Source: Desulfovibrio sp. (GTDB lineage: Bacteria > Desulfobacterota > Desulfovibrionia > Desulfovibrionales > Desulfovibrionaceae). Taken from it: a stretch of DNA of 36,413 bases. Each line of letters begins with the position of its first letter. The first letter of the stretch is position 1. The stretch spans positions 1 through 36,413 of the forward strand of contig JAISMY010000087.1 in NCBI GenBank assembly GCA_031276485.1, written 5' to 3'. The notes under the pieces are model-generated. The model was not told where the DNA came from. It saw only the letters and a list, made by a program, of their open reading frames with translations, and made no database searches. Shown in pieces: positions 1,671 through 32,931 of the stretch. Both the position numbers and the translations under genes were made by a program.

Positions 1671-1851
1671 AAGGAAACGCTGCGTTATTCTTTTTAAAGA
1701 CCTCAAGCGGGATTCGGGACAAAGCTCGGAATGACAAAAGCGTAGTCATTCTGAGCCTCGGCCTGAACAGGGCGAAAGGCCGAACATGCGCCGTCAGGTG
1801 AAGAAGCCGGCTTCATGCATTTTGCCTTTCCTGTATTAATCGCCTTTCCCT
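1671..1851 (-). repeat. Long copy of GGAAACGC-ended intergenic repeat
   Basis: It begins GGAAACGCTGCGTTATTC and ends GATTAATCGCCTTTCCC, which are inverted partners of the ends of the short copy at 32233-32312. The right third reads, on the minus strand, as ATTAATACAGGAAAGGC, then CATGAAGCCGGCTTC, almost identical to the 32.2-kb copy. Inside it lies an extra hairpin (1724-1756). This looks like a small non-autonomous mobile or REP-type element with a nested insertion. Confidence 0.65.
1724..1756. repeat. CATTCTGAG hairpin repeat, copy 1
   Basis: The arms GCTCGGAATGAC and GTCATTCTGAGC surround a 9-base loop (AAAAGCGTA), with one G-T wobble. A near-identical hairpin with the same loop core is at 6968-6998. 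Sequences of this type occur as dispersed intergenic repeats in many bacterial genomes. Confidence 0.75.
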
Positions 1852-1885
1852 GACAGACATTCCAAAAAGGAGAGCGGCAGGGTCA

Positions 1886-1943
1886 GGAAGGGGCTGCGGA
1901 AAAGCTATGCCCGGCCAAGCCGGGCGTCAAGCGGAAATCTCCC
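1886..1943 (+). repeat. 58-bp GCCCGGC hairpin repeat, copy 1
   Basis: The first copy of a 58-bp element that matches 16530-16587 at 49 of 58 positions without gaps. The core is a 7-bp GCCCGGC/GCCGGGC hairpin with loop CAA, preceded by GGAAGGGG and followed by GTCAAGCGG and AATCTCCC. It could be a structured RNA or a dispersed repeat. Confidence 0.7.
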
Positions 1944-6902: not shown

Positions 6903-7074
6903 TCATCAACGCTTCTGGAATGCGGACTTATTCTTGCGAAAGGCAGGAGGATGGATTCTCCGCTACACTCAGAATGACAAAAGCGTAGACATTCTGAGCC
7001 GTAATGAAGCGAAGGCAAAGAATCTTCATCTTGATGTATTTTGCCTTTCCCGCATTAATCAGCGTTTCCCTTCC
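6903..7074 (-). repeat. GGAAACGC-ended intergenic repeat with nested hairpin, copy at fbp
   Basis: On the minus strand this begins GGGAAACGCTGATTAATGCG, followed by GGAAAGGCAAAAT, the same order as in the copies at 1671-1851 and 32233-32312. The other end contains AACGCTtctgg and TTATTCTT, matching the 1671 copy. A CATTCTGAG hairpin sits at 6968-6998. The element ends about a dozen bases before the fbp start codon, so it forms the fbp leader. Confidence 0.6.
6968..6998. repeat. CATTCTGAG hairpin repeat, copy 2
   Basis: The perfect 9-bp arms CTCAGAATG and CATTCTGAG enclose a 13-base loop containing AAAAGCGTA, the same loop core as at 1724-1756. It is transcribed in the fbp leader if the promoter lies further right. 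Confidence 0.75.
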
Positions 7075-16210: not shown

Positions 16211-16599
16211 GGATTGTCTGCACCGGACTTATGTGATAGGAACGCCTTGGAAAAACCGCCGCATTGTCACAGGTTCGCCGCATTGCCGCAGTACTTGACG
16301 GCATTGACATATCGTCACGGTATTTCACGGTATCGACATACCGTCCCGGTATTGTCGCACTGTGCGGCATGTGCCCTGTTTCGTCAAGGGGGGTTGCGTC
16401 CCCCGCGCCGCACTCCCCCTGTACCTTCCGCAAACGGGCAACGGATGTTTGTTTCAGGCCGCATCCGGCCCGACCGCCGGATCACTCCGCCGAGTCGATC
16501 GGGAGCCGGACGGACCGGCGTTCACTGAAGGAAGGGGTTACCGGAAAGGTATGCCCGGCGTTGCCGGGCGTCAAGCGGGAATCTCCCGAGGAATTTCTG
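16211..16599. promoter_or_regulatory. Divergent nadC/mgtE control region with direct repeats
   Basis: This 389-base gene-free interval lies between divergent nadC and mgtE. Near nadC are two 19-bp direct repeats, GACATAYCGTCMCGGTATT at 16306-16324 and 16335-16353, which match at 17 positions and sit among further ACGGTAT half-units. They are candidate regulator sites. Near mgtE is the 58-bp hairpin repeat (16530-16587). No known NAD or magnesium riboswitch core was recognised. A plus-strand frame through this region is open but lacks coding character. Confidence 0.5.
16530..16587 (+). repeat. 58-bp GCCCGGC hairpin repeat, copy 2, abutting mgtE
   Basis: Matches 1886-1943 at 49 of 58 positions without gaps. 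The 7-bp hairpin arms are identical while the loop differs (GTT here, CAA there). It ends 12 bases before the mgtE start, and its last CCC directly precedes the GAGGAA ribosome-binding site. In this position it could be a cis-acting RNA or a repeat that happened to insert in the leader. Confidence 0.7.
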
Positions 16600-21440: not shown

Positions 21441-21490
21441 TTGACAACGAATGTCTTGACCTTGCCTGCGCGTCCGGATCCGGAAAAATT

Positions 21491-21635
21491 TTTATCTATG
21501 GATAGATACAATCATGGTAACGTCCAAAAATTACAAGTTGTTCCGAGCTGTGTCGAGGTGTTGGGAAACATCCTGACAACATGCTGATTTTATAATATTT
21601 TTGTGCAGAAAATCTATCCGTTGATGTACACTCTC
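21491..21635 (+). repeat. Structured ~146-bp repeat, copy A
   Basis: Copy A of an element whose reverse complement is at 26565-26710, with roughly 85-90% identity by eye and almost no gaps. It carries GGATAGAT near one end and ATCTATCC near the other, which could pair. A central hairpin GGTGTT-GGGA-AACATC (21557-21572) has a GNRA-type loop. It lies between the 3' ends of the phosphoesterase gene (plus) and a glycosyltransferase (minus). A+T content is far above the surroundings. Confidence 0.85.
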
Positions 21636-21649
21636 AAAGCAAATTGGTA

Positions 21650-22672
21650 TCAGATGAGTTTTCCGAGGACGCGCCGGCGCAGTTCCATGCCGATGCGGCG
21701 CAGCAGCAAAGGATTGCGGAAGCAGAGCGACGGCGCTTCCCGCAGGGCGCGCAGGGCCGTTTTCGCGGCGTCCCCGCGCTTTCCCATGCGGAACAGGGCG
21801 CAGGCGGCGCGCGCCGTCGCGGCCTGACGCGCCGCCGTACTCAGACCGGGTATTTTGAGCATGGACTCGGCAATGCGGTAGTCGTCCCACGCCCGCGCCC
21901 CGGCCAGAGCGGCATCTTGCGTGGCTTGCCCGGCATGCACCCGGATGTCCGCAAGAACGTCCCCAATGCTTGCCGCCCGGCTTCCCCGCCGGAGCATGGC
22001 CGTCCACAGGGCCAGATCCTGAGCATAGGGGAAGGAGAGATCGTAGCCCCCGGCCGCCTGCGCCGCAACTGTCCTGAACATGCATGCCGAGTTGGCGAAC
22101 GGGTTGCGCAGAGGCAGCGTATCGCGCAACGCATCGTGTTGCGTCGGGAAGCGGTCCCGGGCGAGGACTTGTCCGGAAGCGTCCAGATACTCCACATCCG
22201 AACCCAGCAGGTCCGTTTCCGGGTGCGCGGCCAGAAAATTGCTTTGCCGTTCCAGCCGCTCGGGCCGGCAGCGGTCGTCGGCGTCCATGACGGCGACGAG
22301 GTCCGTGTCCGCCGCATCCAGCCCCATGCGTAAGGCCCCTGTGCGTCCGGCATCGGCGGGCAGATGCCGGACGACAAGGACGCATCCGGGCTTTACCCTG
22401 GGCGGTCCGGGGGGATCGGCGGGGGGGAGGATACTTCGATCCTGTTCGGCGTTGCGTCCGGTCTTTGCGCGGAGCGGAAACTCCGGCGGCCCGCCGTCGA
22501 GCGTCGCCGCCGTTGCGTCGAGAAAGGCGCTGGTGCCGTCCGTCGAGGCGTTGTCCAGAATCAGGAATGTGAAATCCCGGCGGGTCTGGCTCAGAATGCA
22601 GCGTACGGCTTCTTCAAGGTAAGGCATACCGTTGCGCACGGTCATGAGGACGGTCAGGCTGAGTGCCGGCAT
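21650..22672 (-). CDS. GT2-family glycosyltransferase
   Basis: Predicted GT-A fold glycosyltransferase of 340 residues. It starts with the typical first strand LTVLMTVRNGMPYLEEAVRCILSQT, then LILDNASTDGTSAFLD, and the DxD metal/sugar-nucleotide motif in VAVMDADDRC (D130, D132). Between them is an unusual Gly/Pro-rich insertion (about 58-97). The acceptor-side motif NPFANSACMFR and the helical C-terminus LLRRIGMELRRRVLGKL fit a membrane-associated enzyme building surface glycan. ATG 22672 is chosen because the family core begins there; the upstream frame enters the preceding gene. Its stop codon is the TGA at the edge of a repeat (TGATACCAATTTGC). It follows the LpoA-like gene by 47 bases. Confidence 0.88.
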   Translation of the reverse strand: MPALSLTVLMTVRNGMPYLEEAVRCILSQTRRDFTFLILDNASTDGTSAFLDATAATLDGGPPEFPLRAKTGRNAEQDRSILPPADPPGPPRVKPGCVLVVRHLPADAGRTGALRMGLDAADTDLVAVMDADDRCRPERLERQSNFLAAHPETDLLGSDVEYLDASGQVLARDRFPTQHDALRDTLPLRNPFANSACMFRTVAAQAAGGYDLSFPYAQDLALWTAMLRRGSRAASIGDVLADIRVHAGQATQDAALAGARAWDDYRIAESMLKIPGLSTAARQAATARAACALFRMGKRGDAAKTALRALREAPSLCFRNPLLLRRIGMELRRRVLGKLI

Positions 22673-22719
22673 AGGTTTGTATGAGTGTGCAGCGTAACCA
22701 TGCGTGATCGATGCGGCGG

Positions 22720-24636
22720 TCAGCGCCAGGCCTCTTGGTATGCCGCGCGGAAGGCGCTCTCGTCCACCGGGGCGAAGCCGCCGGCGGCAGGCGTAAAAAG
22801 ATGCATGCGCTGCGCGGCGATGCCGCCGTTCCAACTGATGGGGGCTATGCTCCAGTCCAGGGTCACGGACTGCAACGCAGCGTTCACGGTTCCGGGGGAT
22901 ACGTCCGTAATGTTGAGCCCGGCGGACAGGCGGGCGAAATCATAGCCCAGGGCGGACCAGAAATCCGCGCCGGCTTTGCCGGCGGCCGACAGACGCGCCT
23001 GCAGCCTTTCGCCTGCGGGGGTCGGACGCGCGGCGTTCCACAGGCCCGGGAAAACGGCCAGACCGTAATACTGGGTACCGACAAAGCCGCCTGCCGAAAG
23101 ACCCTGTTCCCAAAGACTCGTGCCGAGCAACACTTGCCGCGTTTCGTTCTGGTAAAAGAAATGCGGCACGATGACGTCCATGTTTTTCCAGGTATCGGGC
23201 AGGAAGACGGCCCGGAAGACGCTGCCCTTGCTGTTGGCCGCCAGCAGCTTGTTCGTTGCCGCCATCCAGTCGTTTCGATCGGCCGGGTCATAGCCCTGGA
23301 TCACGATGTCGGTTGCGCCCGCGGCCCGGGCTTTTTCCTCAAAAAGGGCAGCCATGCGTCTGCCGAAATTGTCCTCGGGATGGAAGATACCGTAGCCGCG
23401 TATGCCGAGGCCGGCAGTGAACCCCAACAGGGCGTCCACCTGATCGCCGGCGGCTGCGAAGAAGCGCCATGCGACGCGGCCTTCATCGCCCGGCTCAAGG
23501 GACGGCAGTAGCGCAAAGACGGCCCGGCGTGCGGGTATGCCGGCCGCCTTGGCCTTTGCATAGTCTTCCCGCAGCAGGGGGCCTCCGACGACAAGGGCGG
23601 AGGCGGGCAGGGCATTGACGCGGGCTGTCCAGTCCGCCTGTTTGGTGTCGATAACGAGCAGGGACGCCTTGACTCCGGCCGCGTTCAATTCATCGCAGGC
23701 AATCCCCGCCCCGGCCGTGATTTTTTCGGACACCGGGGCGAATTGCCCGGACAGAGGCAAAAGCAACGCAACGGTCCTGTCTCCCGCCGGCGGGGCGGCA
23801 GGACTGCGCGTACCTGCCTCTATGCGTATTTCCGTTTCCTCCGGCACACGATGCATGAGGGAAGGGTCGGCGAGCGCGGGTTTGCCTGCCGCGTCCTTCA
23901 GGACCGCTTCGACGTCCTCGCGCGTATTCGTCGTCCGGGCGCGGTGCAGTGTGTCCAGCAGGATGACGGAGAACGGGAAAGTACAGCGGTTATCCGCGGT
24001 GACGGCGCTGTAGGCAAGGGTCGACGCCGCCGGATCGGCGAGGTGCAGTTCAAGGGCAAGGCGCCGTTCAAGGGCGGCTTTTTCCGCCGCGCCGGCGGCG
24101 CTGCCGTAAATACTTTCCAAGGCGGCCAGGCTCTGCCCGAGGTCGCCGTCCCGCCACTGGCGCACGGCCAGCACTACGCCCGCCATGCTGCGCACAGGCA
24201 TCGGGCGTCCGCCGGCTTTGTACAGGGCATCGGCCCTGGTACGGGCATCGCCGGACGGCAGGGAGCGTATCGCCTTGGCCCAGGCGTCCTGCCATTCCAC
24301 GCCGGCATCCGCGCCGGGCTCGCTTTTGCGCCAGTCGTCCAGGGCCGTGAGGGCCACGGCGGGGTGGGCATTCTTCAATGCCGCCGCGGCCAGCAGTCGC
24401 GCCGCTCCGGCTTTGTCCGCCGCCTGAGCGCCGGGGTCGGAGGAGAGCCGCAGGGCGAGGCTTTCAGCGCGCCCGTAGTTTCCGGAAATATAGGCTTGCG
24501 CGGCTTCTTCCAGCGGGCTGAACCGGGTTTGCGGGGCAGGGGCTCCGCTCCCGCTTCGGAACAGGGAAACCCCGGAGCAGGCGCTGAAAAAAACGATGCA
24601 GCACAGGCAGATGAATGGGAAAAGATACTTTTTCAT
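22720..24636 (-). CDS. LpoA/ligand-binding-like lipoprotein (penicillin-binding protein activator family)
   Basis: Outer- or inner-membrane lipoprotein of 638 residues. The signal peptide MKKYLFPFICLCCIVFFSAC ends in a lipobox with C20. Residues about 40-270 are TPR-like alpha-helical repeats (YISGNYGRAESLALRL, DALYKAGG). From about 300 a type 1 periplasmic-binding fold begins (VALLLPLSGQFAPVSEKITAGAGIACDEL, ASALVVGGPLLREDYAKAKAAGIP, GYGIFHPEDNFGRRMAALFEEKARAAGATDIV). This TPR plus binding-protein layout is that of LpoA, which activates PBP1A; in other phyla similar proteins are unassigned. ATG 24636 is used as the signal peptide starts there. The function as a peptidoglycan synthase activator is a family inference. 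Confidence 0.85.
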   Translation of the reverse strand: MKKYLFPFICLCCIVFFSACSGVSLFRSGSGAPAPQTRFSPLEEAAQAYISGNYGRAESLALRLSSDPGAQAADKAGAARLLAAAALKNAHPAVALTALDDWRKSEPGADAGVEWQDAWAKAIRSLPSGDARTRADALYKAGGRPMPVRSMAGVVLAVRQWRDGDLGQSLAALESIYGSAAGAAEKAALERRLALELHLADPAASTLAYSAVTADNRCTFPFSVILLDTLHRARTTNTREDVEAVLKDAAGKPALADPSLMHRVPEETEIRIEAGTRSPAAPPAGDRTVALLLPLSGQFAPVSEKITAGAGIACDELNAAGVKASLLVIDTKQADWTARVNALPASALVVGGPLLREDYAKAKAAGIPARRAVFALLPSLEPGDEGRVAWRFFAAAGDQVDALLGFTAGLGIRGYGIFHPEDNFGRRMAALFEEKARAAGATDIVIQGYDPADRNDWMAATNKLLAANSKGSVFRAVFLPDTWKNMDVIVPHFFYQNETRQVLLGTSLWEQGLSAGGFVGTQYYGLAVFPGLWNAARPTPAGERLQARLSAAGKAGADFWSALGYDFARLSAGLNITDVSPGTVNAALQSVTLDWSIAPISWNGGIAAQRMHLFTPAAGGFAPVDESAFRAAYQEAWR

Positions 24637-24920
24637 TGCGTGAACATAGCATCCGGCCATGAAATCAGCAAGTGCCGCACACCGTGCGTGTCGAGAGCAG
24701 ATGATCTCCGTATCATGAATCTTCCGCTTCGGCGGACTGCGGTCGGAACACACTCTGTCAACACCGGCAATGCGCATATTTTCCCCCGCCGTATGCCCCG
24801 CCGGCGCAACGGGAATCCTTGGGAGTCAGGGGGGAAGCAGGGGGAAACAATTAGTGACGATTTTCTTTAACTCGCTAATTTTCAGTGATAAATAGGGTAA
24901 TATGGGATTGCATGGGGGGA

Positions 24921-25280
24921 TCAAATTTTCTGTTTGGTAAACAGAATGATCGCTATGTATTCCAGATCCTTGCTCCCGATGTTTTCTATACCGTGCGTTT
25001 CCCCGTCGCGACAGAAGTTGACGTCGCCGGAGCCGAGTTTCACTTCCGTGCCGTTGTCGTTGACCAGTGCCTCGCCTTGCAGGATGTAGTAAACTTCACA
25101 GTCGCCTTCGTGCTTGTGTACGCCTATGGACGCGCCGGGCGGAATGACGGTTTTGCTGAACAACCGTCCCGCGCCGTTCGATTTGTGCAGGTCGAGAAAA
25201 TGCTCCATGAAGACCTGCCCCTTGCCGCCCCTGAACTCCTTGTGCACGTCCGTTTTGAGTTCCGCATGTTTCTGAATCAC
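24921..25280 (-). CDS. Small cupin-domain protein
   Basis: Single-domain cupin of 119 residues. Motif 1 fits G(X5)HXH(X4)E(X6)G exactly (GASIGVHKHEGDCEVYYILQG), giving metal ligands two His and Glu. Motif 2 (GDVNFCRDGETHGIEN) keeps the last His and Asn but has Arg where Pro is usual. Such proteins are often metal-dependent isomerases, dioxygenases or sugar/small-molecule sensors; no substrate can be named. The start is GTG 25280, preceded by AGGAAGGA. Its leader has a perfect 9-3-9 inverted repeat 41 bases upstream, suggesting regulated expression, and it is bounded upstream by a 99-bp inverted-repeat element. Confidence 0.85.
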   Translation of the reverse strand: MIQKHAELKTDVHKEFRGGKGQVFMEHFLDLHKSNGAGRLFSKTVIPPGASIGVHKHEGDCEVYYILQGEALVNDNGTEVKLGSGDVNFCRDGETHGIENIGSKDLEYIAIILFTKQKI

Positions 25281-25320
25281 GGTAATCCTTCCTTGGTTGA
25301 GGTGTCGGTGGAATTAGAGA

Positions 25321-25341
25321 GCAATTTCAAGGTGAAATTGC
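25321..25341. promoter_or_regulatory. Perfect 9-3-9 inverted repeat upstream of cupin gene
   Basis: GCAATTTCA and TGAAATTGC flank AGG, ending 41 bases before the cupin GTG. Just upstream is a second palindrome, GACAG-A-CTGTC (25390-25400). One or both may be operators for a local regulator; the first could also be a leader hairpin. Confidence 0.5.
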
Positions 25342-25403
25342 TGTTATGCCGGTCTGTCGAAAAATTGAGCTTCATAAACGACTGCATGGACAGACTGTCA
25401 TAG

Positions 25404-25502
25404 GGGAACCTCTAAAAACTCTTTTCCAGACGGAATTGTGCGTTGTAAATCCAGTCTTCGTCAGGTCGGCATGTGACATAAATTTAGTTTTTAGAGGTTC
25501 CC
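25404..25502. mobile_element. 99-bp MITE-like element with perfect 17-bp terminal inverted repeats
   Basis: It starts GGGAACCTCTAAAAACT and ends with its exact reverse complement (25486-25502). The 65-base interior has no coding capacity. These ends resemble transposon termini, so the element is probably a non-autonomous derivative moved by a transposase encoded elsewhere. It lies between the cupin leader and the end of mdh. A target duplication is unclear: the flanks CATA/CATA could fit if the outermost base is excluded. Confidence 0.8.
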
Positions 25503-25535
25503 ATAAGTGGAGATTAAATCAGCGGTTCCCTTCCC

Positions 25536-26471
25536 TCAGGTTCGCTTCGCTGCCGGCAGGGAGGCTGTTTTTGCGCGGATGCCCGCGGCCGAGCGGGCCA
25601 CAGCGTCTTTTTCCTCGTCCGAGAGGTCAAGTACGATGATGTTTTCAACGCCGCGCAGGCCCAGACGCACCGGCACGCACATGAAGATGCCGTCAATGCC
25701 GTACTCCCCGTTCAGGTACGCCGAGCAGGGGAGGATGTCTCCCTTGTCGCGGAGTACCGCTTCGGCCATGACCGCCAGCGCCGCCCCAGGCGCGTAGTAG
25801 GCCGACGAACCCAGATATTCCATAATCCTTGCGCCGCCGAAGACGGCGTTGCTGCAGGCCTGTTCCGTCTGTTCCCCGGTCAGCAGCAGGCCGGCGGGCA
25901 GCCCGGCGACCTGTGAGAGGCGGGGCAGGGGCACCATGCCGTCGCCGTGCTCGCCGATGACCAGTCCCTGGACGGCACGGCCGGGCACGTTCGCCGCGCG
26001 AGCCGTCTCCGCGCGCAGCCGCGCCGTATCAAGCACTCCGGACAGCCCGATAATCCGCCGGGTATCATCAATACCCGCGCGATGCGCGGCCATGCACATG
26101 ACGTCCACGGGGTTGGCCGCTATGATGAAGACCGCGTGCGGCGAATATTTGAGGGTTTTTTGTATTATCTGCCCGACGATGTCCGCGTTGACCATGATCA
26201 GGTCGTCGCGGCTCATCCCGGGTTTGCGGGGTACTCCGGCCGTGACGACGACAATGTCGGAGTGGGCGGTGTCGTCATACTCGGAGCTTCCAGTGACGAT
26301 GCAACCGTGTCCTTCCAGCACGGCCGCCTGGCTGAGGTCAAGGGCTTTGCCCCGCGGGATTTTTTCGTTTATGTCCAGCAGCACCACATCGCCGAGCCCG
26401 CGCATGAGGCAGGCGTGAGCCGCGCTTCCGCCGACGTTTCCGGCGCCGACAACGGTAATGGTATGTCGCAT
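25536..26471 (-). CDS. mdh: NAD-dependent malate dehydrogenase (LDH-like type)
   Basis: Interconverts malate and oxaloacetate. The 311 residues have the Rossmann motif VGAGNVGG (6-13), DINEKIPRGKALDL, VVTAGVPRKPGMSRDDL with the Arg typical of malate rather than lactate specificity, ANPVDVM, GLSGVLDTARLR and catalytic GEHGDGMVPLP. The length and motifs fit the MDH group related to lactate dehydrogenases. ATG 26471 is preceded by AAGGAGAAG. The C-terminus ends 33 bases from the MITE-like element. Upstream lie copy B of the 146-bp repeat and the small membrane-peptide genes in the same direction. Confidence 0.95.
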   Translation of the reverse strand: MRHTITVVGAGNVGGSAAHACLMRGLGDVVLLDINEKIPRGKALDLSQAAVLEGHGCIVTGSSEYDDTAHSDIVVVTAGVPRKPGMSRDDLIMVNADIVGQIIQKTLKYSPHAVFIIAANPVDVMCMAAHRAGIDDTRRIIGLSGVLDTARLRAETARAANVPGRAVQGLVIGEHGDGMVPLPRLSQVAGLPAGLLLTGEQTEQACSNAVFGGARIMEYLGSSAYYAPGAALAVMAEAVLRDKGDILPCSAYLNGEYGIDGIFMCVPVRLGLRGVENIIVLDLSDEEKDAVARSAAGIRAKTASLPAAKRT

Positions 26472-26564
26472 AACTTCTCCTTGCCGGGATTAATTCGCTG
26501 CGGGCGGCGCAACGGGAACCGCCGGCGTTTCGCGGCAACGCGTTCCGCCTGCCGTTTTTTTTGC

Positions 26565-26710
26565 GAGAGTGTACGTCAACAGATAGATTTTCTACGCAAA
26601 AATATTATAAAATCAGCATATTGTCATGATGTTTCTCAACACCTCGACACAGCTCGGAAAAACTTGTAATTTTTTGACGTTACTATGCTTATATCTATCC
26701 ATAGGTAAAA
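26565..26710 (-). repeat. Structured ~146-bp repeat, copy B (inverted relative to copy A)
   Basis: The reverse complement of copy A. The terminal GGATAGAT is kept, and its partner is ATCTATCT, still able to pair with one G-U. The hairpin is GGTGTT-GAGA-AACATC (minus strand, 26643-26628): same stem, and a loop changed from GGGA to GAGA, both GNRA. It follows the tiny 29-residue gene and precedes mdh, all on the minus strand. Confidence 0.85.
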
Positions 26711-26733
26711 ACTCTCACGCTTTTTTCGTATGC

Positions 26734-32232: not shown

Positions 32233-32312
32233 AGGAAACGCGGATTAATGCAGGAAAGGCACAATTCATGAAGCCGGCTTCAGCCTTTCAAAAGAATAAA
32301 GCAGCGTTTCCC
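32233..32312 (+). repeat. Short copy of GGAAACGC-ended repeat upstream of ferritin
   Basis: An ~80-bp element bounded by GGAAACGC and GCGTTTCC, with a central palindrome TGAAGCCGGCTTCA. Both halves match, in reverse, the two ends of the longer copy at 1671-1851. It is the simplest form of this repeat family in the window. Confidence 0.7.
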
Positions 32313-32316
32313 TGAG

Positions 32317-32350
32317 ACCGGTTTGCTTTCAGCGGAAAGCGACTTGGTAT
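32317..32350. repeat. Imperfect TTTGCTTTC hairpin upstream of ferritin
   Basis: ACCGGTTTGCTTTC-AGCG-GAAAGCGACTTGGTAT is a diverged version of the perfect hairpin at 32896-32931. Its 3' half (TTGGTATCA) also occurs next to copy A of the 146-bp repeat at 21643-21655. It lies 28 bases before the ferritin start. Confidence 0.7.
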
Positions 32351-32377
32351 CATCAGAAGAACAAGGAGGAAACAGCA

Positions 32378-32896
32378 ATGTTGAAAGACAGCGTAGTCAA
32401 AGCCCTCAGTGATCAGGTAAATACTGAATATTATTCAGCCTATCTGTATCTTGCCATGTCCGCGAGCGCGGACCGCATGGGTTTCAAAGGTGTGGCCAAC
32501 TGGCTGTTTGTGCAGGCCAGGGAGGAAACAGCGCACGGCACGCACCTTTACCAACATCTTCTGGGGCGGGGCGCAACCCCGTTTTTTGCGGACATCAAAG
32601 CGCCCGAGACCGCCTATGCGGGCATCAGGGAAATCTTTGAGAAGGTGCTGGCGCATGAGCGGCACGTCACCGAACTGATCAACGGCATCGCGTCCCTTGC
32701 CGTGCGTGAGGACGATCACGCCACATACAACTTTATCATGTGGTATGTGAACGAGCAGGTCGAGGAAGAGGCGAGCGCCGAGGAGATTCTGACCAAGATC
32801 CGGTTTGTCGGGGACAAACTCGATCAGTTGTACATCCTGAACACCGAACTGGGCGCGCGCGTGTTCACGGATCCCTTCGCCGCAACGGCGAACTGA
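32378..32896 (+). CDS. Ferritin
   Basis: Iron-storage protein of 172 residues that assembles into a 24-subunit shell, oxidises Fe2+ and stores it as mineral. Ferroxidase-centre ligands are visible: E17, E50 and H53 (REETAH), E94 and the E126-Q127 region (YVNEQVEEE). The length and pattern match bacterial FtnA rather than bacterioferritin (no haem-ligand Met motif recognised). The start is clear, with AAGGAGG nine bases upstream. It is flanked on both sides by TTTGCTTTC hairpins. No Fur box was confidently seen. It appears to be a single-gene unit. Confidence 0.95.
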   Translation: MLKDSVVKALSDQVNTEYYSAYLYLAMSASADRMGFKGVANWLFVQAREETAHGTHLYQHLLGRGATPFFADIKAPETAYAGIREIFEKVLAHERHVTELINGIASLAVREDDHATYNFIMWYVNEQVEEEASAEEILTKIRFVGDKLDQLYILNTELGARVFTDPFAATAN

Positions 32897-32931
32897 TACC
32901 GATTTGCTTTCAGCAGAAAGCAAATCGGTAT
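32896..32931 (+). terminator. Perfect 16-bp stem hairpin at the ferritin stop
   Basis: ATACCGATTTGCTTTC and its exact reverse complement enclose loop AGCA. The hairpin starts at the last base of the TGA stop codon. It probably stabilises or terminates the ferritin message, and belongs to the repeat family also seen at 32317-32350 and 21637-21655. Confidence 0.75.

What the first reader, a model, noticed from the sequence alone, without database searches (positions are those of the whole stretch)
21491..26710. Duplicated, inverted 146-bp element with conserved GNRA-type hairpin bracketing 5 kb
Copies at 21491-21635 and 26565-26710 are reverse complements, about 85-90% alike by eye. The hairpin stem GGTGTT/AACATC is unchanged while the loop differs GGGA versus GAGA, both GNRA, and the terminal GGATAGAT/ATCTATCC pairing survives as a G-U change. 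This is what selection on RNA structure would leave. The element is A+T-rich in a G+C-rich genome, encodes no protein, and in each case lies downstream, in sense, of a small transcription unit. It may be an undescribed non-coding RNA or a structured non-autonomous mobile element. The inverted pair could also invert the GT2-lpoA-cupin-mdh block.
Basis: partly seen in the sequence, partly recalled or inferred. Interest (0 to 1): 0.65.

Follow-up and report, generated by a model that had tools for sequence, protein, structure and literature searches.

The report
A dispersed MITE-like repeat family

Summary
In detail: 21489-21635 (+) and 26565-26711 (-) are 134/147 (91%) identical inverted copies. 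They are two of about 45 copies in this 2.23-Mb draft genome. The unit is about 152 nt, A+T-rich, non-coding and intergenic. Its ends are imperfect inverted repeats (GAGAGT-N10-GGATAGAT, 18/24 matches).

Homologues of the same length occur in three more Desulfovibrionaceae genomes: one 94% identical, two about 70%. These share the ends and subterminal blocks but not the central GNRA hairpin. Across 34 copies the hairpin has one compensated pair, tracing to one subfamily. The end-to-end pairing shows no covariation. Stem mutation rate resembles the rest. The folding signal comes from the terminal inverted repeats.

Best explanation: a new non-autonomous mobile-element family (MITE kind), presumably moved by a transposase absent from the assembly. 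Two points stay open. No autonomous partner was found, and 8-bp target duplications are rare (one exact, one 7/8, of 32 copies), although both flanks are AAAATTTT-like. Inversion of the 5-kb block could not be tested. One case elsewhere in the genome suggests that dispersed repeats here do recombine.

The parts
21484..21635 (+). copy 1 of the repeat (152 nt), between a Metallophos gene and a convergent GT2 gene
26565..26716 (-). copy 2 of the repeat (152 nt), between a very short ORF and mdh
21484..21507 (+). left terminal inverted repeat of copy 1 (outer GAGAGT degenerate, inner GGATAGAT intact)
21612..21635 (-). right terminal inverted repeat of copy 1, GAGAGTGTACATCAACGGATAGAT
26693..26716 (-). 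left terminal inverted repeat of copy 2, GAGAGTTTTTACCTATGGATAGAT
26565..26588 (+). right terminal inverted repeat of copy 2, GAGAGTGTACGTCAACAGATAGAT
21557..21572 (+). central hairpin GGTGTT[GGGA]AACATC of copy 1 (real, but not conserved in relatives)
26628..26643 (-). central hairpin GGTGTT[GAGA]AACATC of copy 2

Best explanation
A family of about 152-nt non-autonomous mobile DNA elements of the MITE kind. Shown here: many dispersed copies in an older diverse set and a younger, nearly uniform set; constant ends forming 24-nt imperfect inverted repeats with two conserved blocks (GAGAGT and GGATAGAT); no protein; A+T-rich; intergenic; A/T-rich flanks; nested in and beside other repeats and insertion-sequence fragments; same-length relatives in other Desulfovibrionaceae. 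Inferred: an insertion-sequence transposase acting in trans binds the inner GGATAGAT block at both ends, cuts at the GAGAGT tips, and inserts the unit into short A/T-rich sites. The central hairpin is a by-product of the element's partly palindromic sequence. The two window copies are two independent insertions that happen to face each other.
For: 42 places in the own genome plus solo ends; 33 full-length copies aligned with JAISLI and constant ends; younger copies 95-99% like the consensus and older ones about 79-91%. Same-length relatives with the same end blocks in G239 and G241 (about 70%) and G243/JAISLI (94%). Not found inside genes in a heuristic gene call, apart from one ambiguous case. 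Both flanks carry an AAAATTTT-like 8-10 bp bias, with one exact 8-bp duplication (L053) and one 7/8 (L013). Nesting in other mobile DNA: IS256-type fragment at C101, a second repeat family, ORFs resembling other IS transposases in G239 and JAISLI. Published traits of bacterial MITEs match: under 500 bp, TIRs of 4-30 bp, A+T-rich, intergenic, transcripts fold into long stem-loops, nested repeats (PMC10969869; PMC2229807).
Against: Target duplications are mostly missing even in young copies: own left and right 8-mers match no better than shuffled pairs (95 against 84.8, p = 0.09). No element with these ends around a transposase gene was found in this genome or in 288 genomes of the family. The only transposase family tested in the own genome, PF00872, gives one decayed fragment. 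Full-length homology at about 70% between genera is more than type II MITEs, which share only their ends, would show.
Confidence: 0.83

Rival explanations
1. An undescribed structured non-coding RNA that is selected for its fold: the central GNRA hairpin plus end-to-end pairing acts in the transcript, for instance as a 3' stabiliser or a small RNA.
For: Full-length folding is better than shuffles (z -3.85 young, -2.63 old consensus), and the + strand folds better than the - strand in 27 of 33 copies. One pair shows T-A, T-G and C-G states. All 34 loops read as GNRA (GAGA, GGGA, GCGA, GCAA) in the alignment.
Against: Without the terminal repeats the core is not better than shuffles in this genome (z -0.55 and -1.2) and worse in G239 (+1.6). 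Only one compensated pair, from one subfamily; at most a single cell in the ends. Stem mutation rate like the rest. The loop in G241 and G239 is not GNRA. No Rfam match in the window.
Confidence: 0.06
2. A mobile repeat moved by a mechanism that makes no target duplication (not a classical cut-and-paste transposase), which prefers bent, A-tract DNA.
For: Own-flank 8-mers do not match in 10 of 11 young copies checked, while both flanks show AAAAATTTTT-like bias. The four copies with both flanks seen in G241, G239 and JAISLI also lack an obvious duplication.
Against: Paired 24-nt terminal inverted repeats are typical of cut-and-paste elements; one exact and one 7/8 8-bp duplication. Recombination among copies could separate true duplications: across copies, left and right flanks match 8/8 three times against 0.57 expected, although the shared A/T bias may explain this.
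Confidence: 0.13
3. A recombination switch: the inverted pair flips the 5-kb GT2-lpoA-cupin-mdh block.
For: 91% identity in inverted orientation; other dispersed repeats here appear to have recombined.
Against: Some 45 copies lie all over the genome, so this pair is not special. The longest identical run is 23 nt, short for efficient homologous recombination (general knowledge). The closest relative searched (G078) keeps only lpoA-GT2, not the cupin-mdh part, so orientation cannot be read.
Confidence: 0.03

Closest known systems
Bacterial MITEs such as Chunjie (Geobacter), ERIC, Correia/NEMIS, MITEAba12 (PMC10969869, PMC2229807, PMC6382973)
   Same: Size, A+T richness, terminal inverted repeats, no protein, tens of copies, intergenic, partial copies, stem-loop potential
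   Different: No sequence similarity to a known family was tested beyond Rfam, plasmid and phage collections (none found); consistent target duplications and an autonomous partner were not shown
RUP of Streptococcus pneumoniae (PMC2229807)
   Same: Small element that lands among insertion sequences and other repeats
   Different: RUP ends match IS630-Spn1 and it targets TA; here the partner IS is unknown and targets look like AAAATTTT
IS256-family insertion sequences (Pfam PF00872)
   Same: The only transposase fragment found lies directly beside one copy; 8-9 bp duplications are usual in that family (general knowledge)
   Different: Ends of IS256-type elements closest to the fragment (50% aa) do not resemble the repeat's ends, so the adjacency is probably chance

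Membership tests
Bacterial MITE | Length under 500 bp, no transposase | tested here: met
   152 nt, no reading frame of its own
Bacterial MITE | Terminal inverted repeats | tested here: met
   18/24 matches between the ends, same blocks in most copies and in relatives
Bacterial MITE | Multi-copy and dispersed | tested here: met
   42 places plus solo ends in one genome
Bacterial MITE | A+T-rich, intergenic | tested here: met
   33-36% G+C in a 60% window; intergenic placement by heuristic gene calls
Bacterial MITE | Flanking target duplication in younger copies | tested here: inconclusive
   One exact 8-bp and one 7/8 among 32; overall p = 0.09
Bacterial MITE | Autonomous IS with matching ends | tested here: inconclusive
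   None found in own draft genome or 288 family genomes; drafts often lose insertion sequences
Structured ncRNA family | Covarying base pairs beyond shuffles and across species | tested here: not met
Structured ncRNA family | Match to a described family | tested here: not met
   Rfam 15, no hit
Structured ncRNA family | Transcription | not testable with these tools
   no RNA reads available
Ends of a known insertion sequence (IS256 type) | Ends alike | tested here: not met
   for the closest relatives of the PF00872 fragment only

The most novel reading that the evidence does not exclude
A small element kept at the same 149-152 nt and about 70% identity over its full length in several Desulfovibrionaceae genera, moving without regular target duplications: either a mobile family with an unrecognised transposition mechanism, or one whose subterminal blocks, conserved but not complementary, have a function of their own.
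Probability: 0.12. Interest if true: 0.45.

Novelty: new member of a known kind. Interest (0 to 1): 0.22.

Why it matters
It names and delimits an undescribed repeat family that makes up about 0.3% of this draft genome (about 45 x 152 nt), explains several contig breaks in the assembly, and turns an apparent two-copy RNA motif into a known kind of thing. In the open-access library searched, three papers contain both 'miniature inverted-repeat' and 'Desulfovibrio'; judged by titles and counts (not read), none is about such elements in this group. It also shows that stem conservation between two copies of a repeat is weak evidence for a functional RNA.

Tried and rejected
Rfam scan of the window: nothing. 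Plasmid and phage collections: nothing. IS256 as partner: ends of the nearest IS256-type elements do not match. Shuffled-flank hypothesis (true duplications separated by recombination): only suggestive. Inversion by synteny: the block is not conserved in the relatives searched. Orientation bias relative to genes: weak.

Full report
What is there. The window holds two inverted copies of one sequence, 21489-21635 (+) and 26565-26711 (-), the longest inverted pair in the window. They match at 134 of 147 positions, with a longest identical run of 23 nt.

It is a family. A search of the window's own draft genome (2.23 Mb, 116 contigs, 86.9% complete) finds 42 places. End-pattern searches add a solo right end at C93 upstream of a gene whose product reads like MreB (identified by eye) and left ends or left halves at C57, C71, C73 and C21. 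In all there are about 45 copies. Several contigs start or stop inside or at the element (C19, C26, C81, C84, C106, C107), as expected for a repeat that breaks assemblies.

Anatomy. The full unit is about 152 nt. It begins GAGAGTTTTTAYCTATGGATAGRT and ends in the reverse complement of GAGAGTGTACATCAACGGATAGAT; the ends agree at 18 of 24 positions, in an outer GAGAGT and an inner GGATAGAT block. There are two sets: a younger one, nearly uniform (95-99% to its own consensus), and an older one (about 79-91%). Older copies carry small internal duplications, including a tandem copy of the hairpin in three of them (L030, L056, L058).

Flanks. Both sides are A/T-rich for 8-10 bp with an AAAAATTTTT-like trend. 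Exact target duplication is seen only in L053 (CGATTTCC), with 7/8 in L013; over 32 copies the own-pair matches are not above shuffles (p = 0.09). Copies were not found inside genes in a heuristic gene call, apart from one ambiguous case. They often sit beside other mobile DNA: a decayed PF00872 transposase fragment at C101, a second repeat family, and, in relatives, the beginnings or pieces of ORFs that by eye resemble IS1-, IS630- and IS5-type transposases (not confirmed by a profile search).

Relatives. With the 152-nt query none of 198 other family genomes matched, but the two-block end pattern GAGAGT-N10-GGATAGAT hits G239, G243 and G062 among 288 (the hits in G017 and G130 look like chance), and a G239-based query adds G241. 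G243 is JAISLI, Desulfovibrio sp. Im510_bin1 (same contig position); I take it to be a termite-gut genome from its name pattern only, since the paper I checked does not name it. Its copy is 94% identical to the younger consensus and has the same left flank as the copy at the end of contig C57 here, so either transfer between species or mixed binning is possible. G239 and G241 copies are about 70% identical over their whole length, 149-151 nt.

The RNA question. In 34 copies the central hairpin keeps 95% of cells paired, but has changes on both sides at only one pair (T-A to C-G, with T-G in five copies), which separates the younger set from most older ones and so counts as about one event. The terminal pairing scores below shuffles on covariation. 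In older copies the inner stem changes at 0.062 per site against 0.076 elsewhere; of 10 distinct transitions 8 keep pairing, where 60% is expected. Across species, three pairs show a both-sides change, within the range of shuffles (130 of 500 reach it) and of slid registers. The loop region in G241 and G239 is not GNRA. With the terminal repeats removed, the fold is no better than shuffles in this genome, better in G241 (z -2.2 to -2.9) and worse in G239 (+1.6). That G241 value is the one result that leans the other way; it involves a different register of pairing. A constant GNRA loop in all 34 copies is noted, but only three copies differ from GAGA, and I did not test it formally.

How it probably works. 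Inferred from anatomy: a transposase made elsewhere binds both ends and inserts the unit into A/T-rich intergenic sites; older copies then decay and recombine. Shown: copy number, ends, two age classes, nesting. Not shown: the partner, the duplication, movement itself.

The 5-kb block. In the nearest relative searched (G078, LpoA 88% identical) lpoA and GT2 are kept, but cupin and mdh were not found beside them and homology stops at the GT2 end, next to the element. Orientation therefore cannot be compared. Elsewhere, C73 and C92 carry the left and right halves of what looks like one element, each joined to a 99% identical copy of the second repeat family, with GAGCTGTGTC at both junctions: a plausible trace of recombination between dispersed repeats.

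Verdict. A real, undescribed, ordinary mobile-repeat family; low interest, with open points on target duplication and partner.

Noticed in passing
own genome, e.g. C92:30359-30518, C73:14531-14690, C102:9884-10042: A second dispersed non-coding repeat family of about 160 nt, 35 places, with inverted ends AGCAATTCT; one copy appears to have inserted into the first family with a 10-bp duplication.
   Followed up: partly
window 1885-1943 and 16529-16587: A 59-nt direct repeat (85%) that also lies beside the second repeat family and the element at the end of contig C57 and in JAISLI.
   Followed up: no
window 1803-1851, 7030-7069, 32233-32281: A further short dispersed repeat (GAAGCCGGCTTCATG...), three places in the window.
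   Followed up: no
window 32312-32352 and 32893-32931: Two copies of a palindrome-like sequence (TTTGCTTTCAGCNGAAAGC), similar ones seen at C21 and C73.
   Followed up: no
L031 1477-1974 (C101): An IS256-type transposase fragment lacking both ends, cut off exactly at a young copy of the element, upstream of a gene whose product reads like DsrC.
   Followed up: partly
L020, L030, L056 flanks: A shared flank TATGGCACAA...TTTTTATAA, resembling a sigma-54 promoter or another repeat.
   Followed up: no
L095 (C71 end): Another inserted sequence (TGACTAATTGTTAAAGTTACGAGCAT, repeated about 100 nt apart) interrupts a copy of the element.
   Followed up: no
L140 223-321 against window 25404-25502: A short stretch between cupin and mdh is 76% conserved in G078 although the two genes were not found there.
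   Followed up: no
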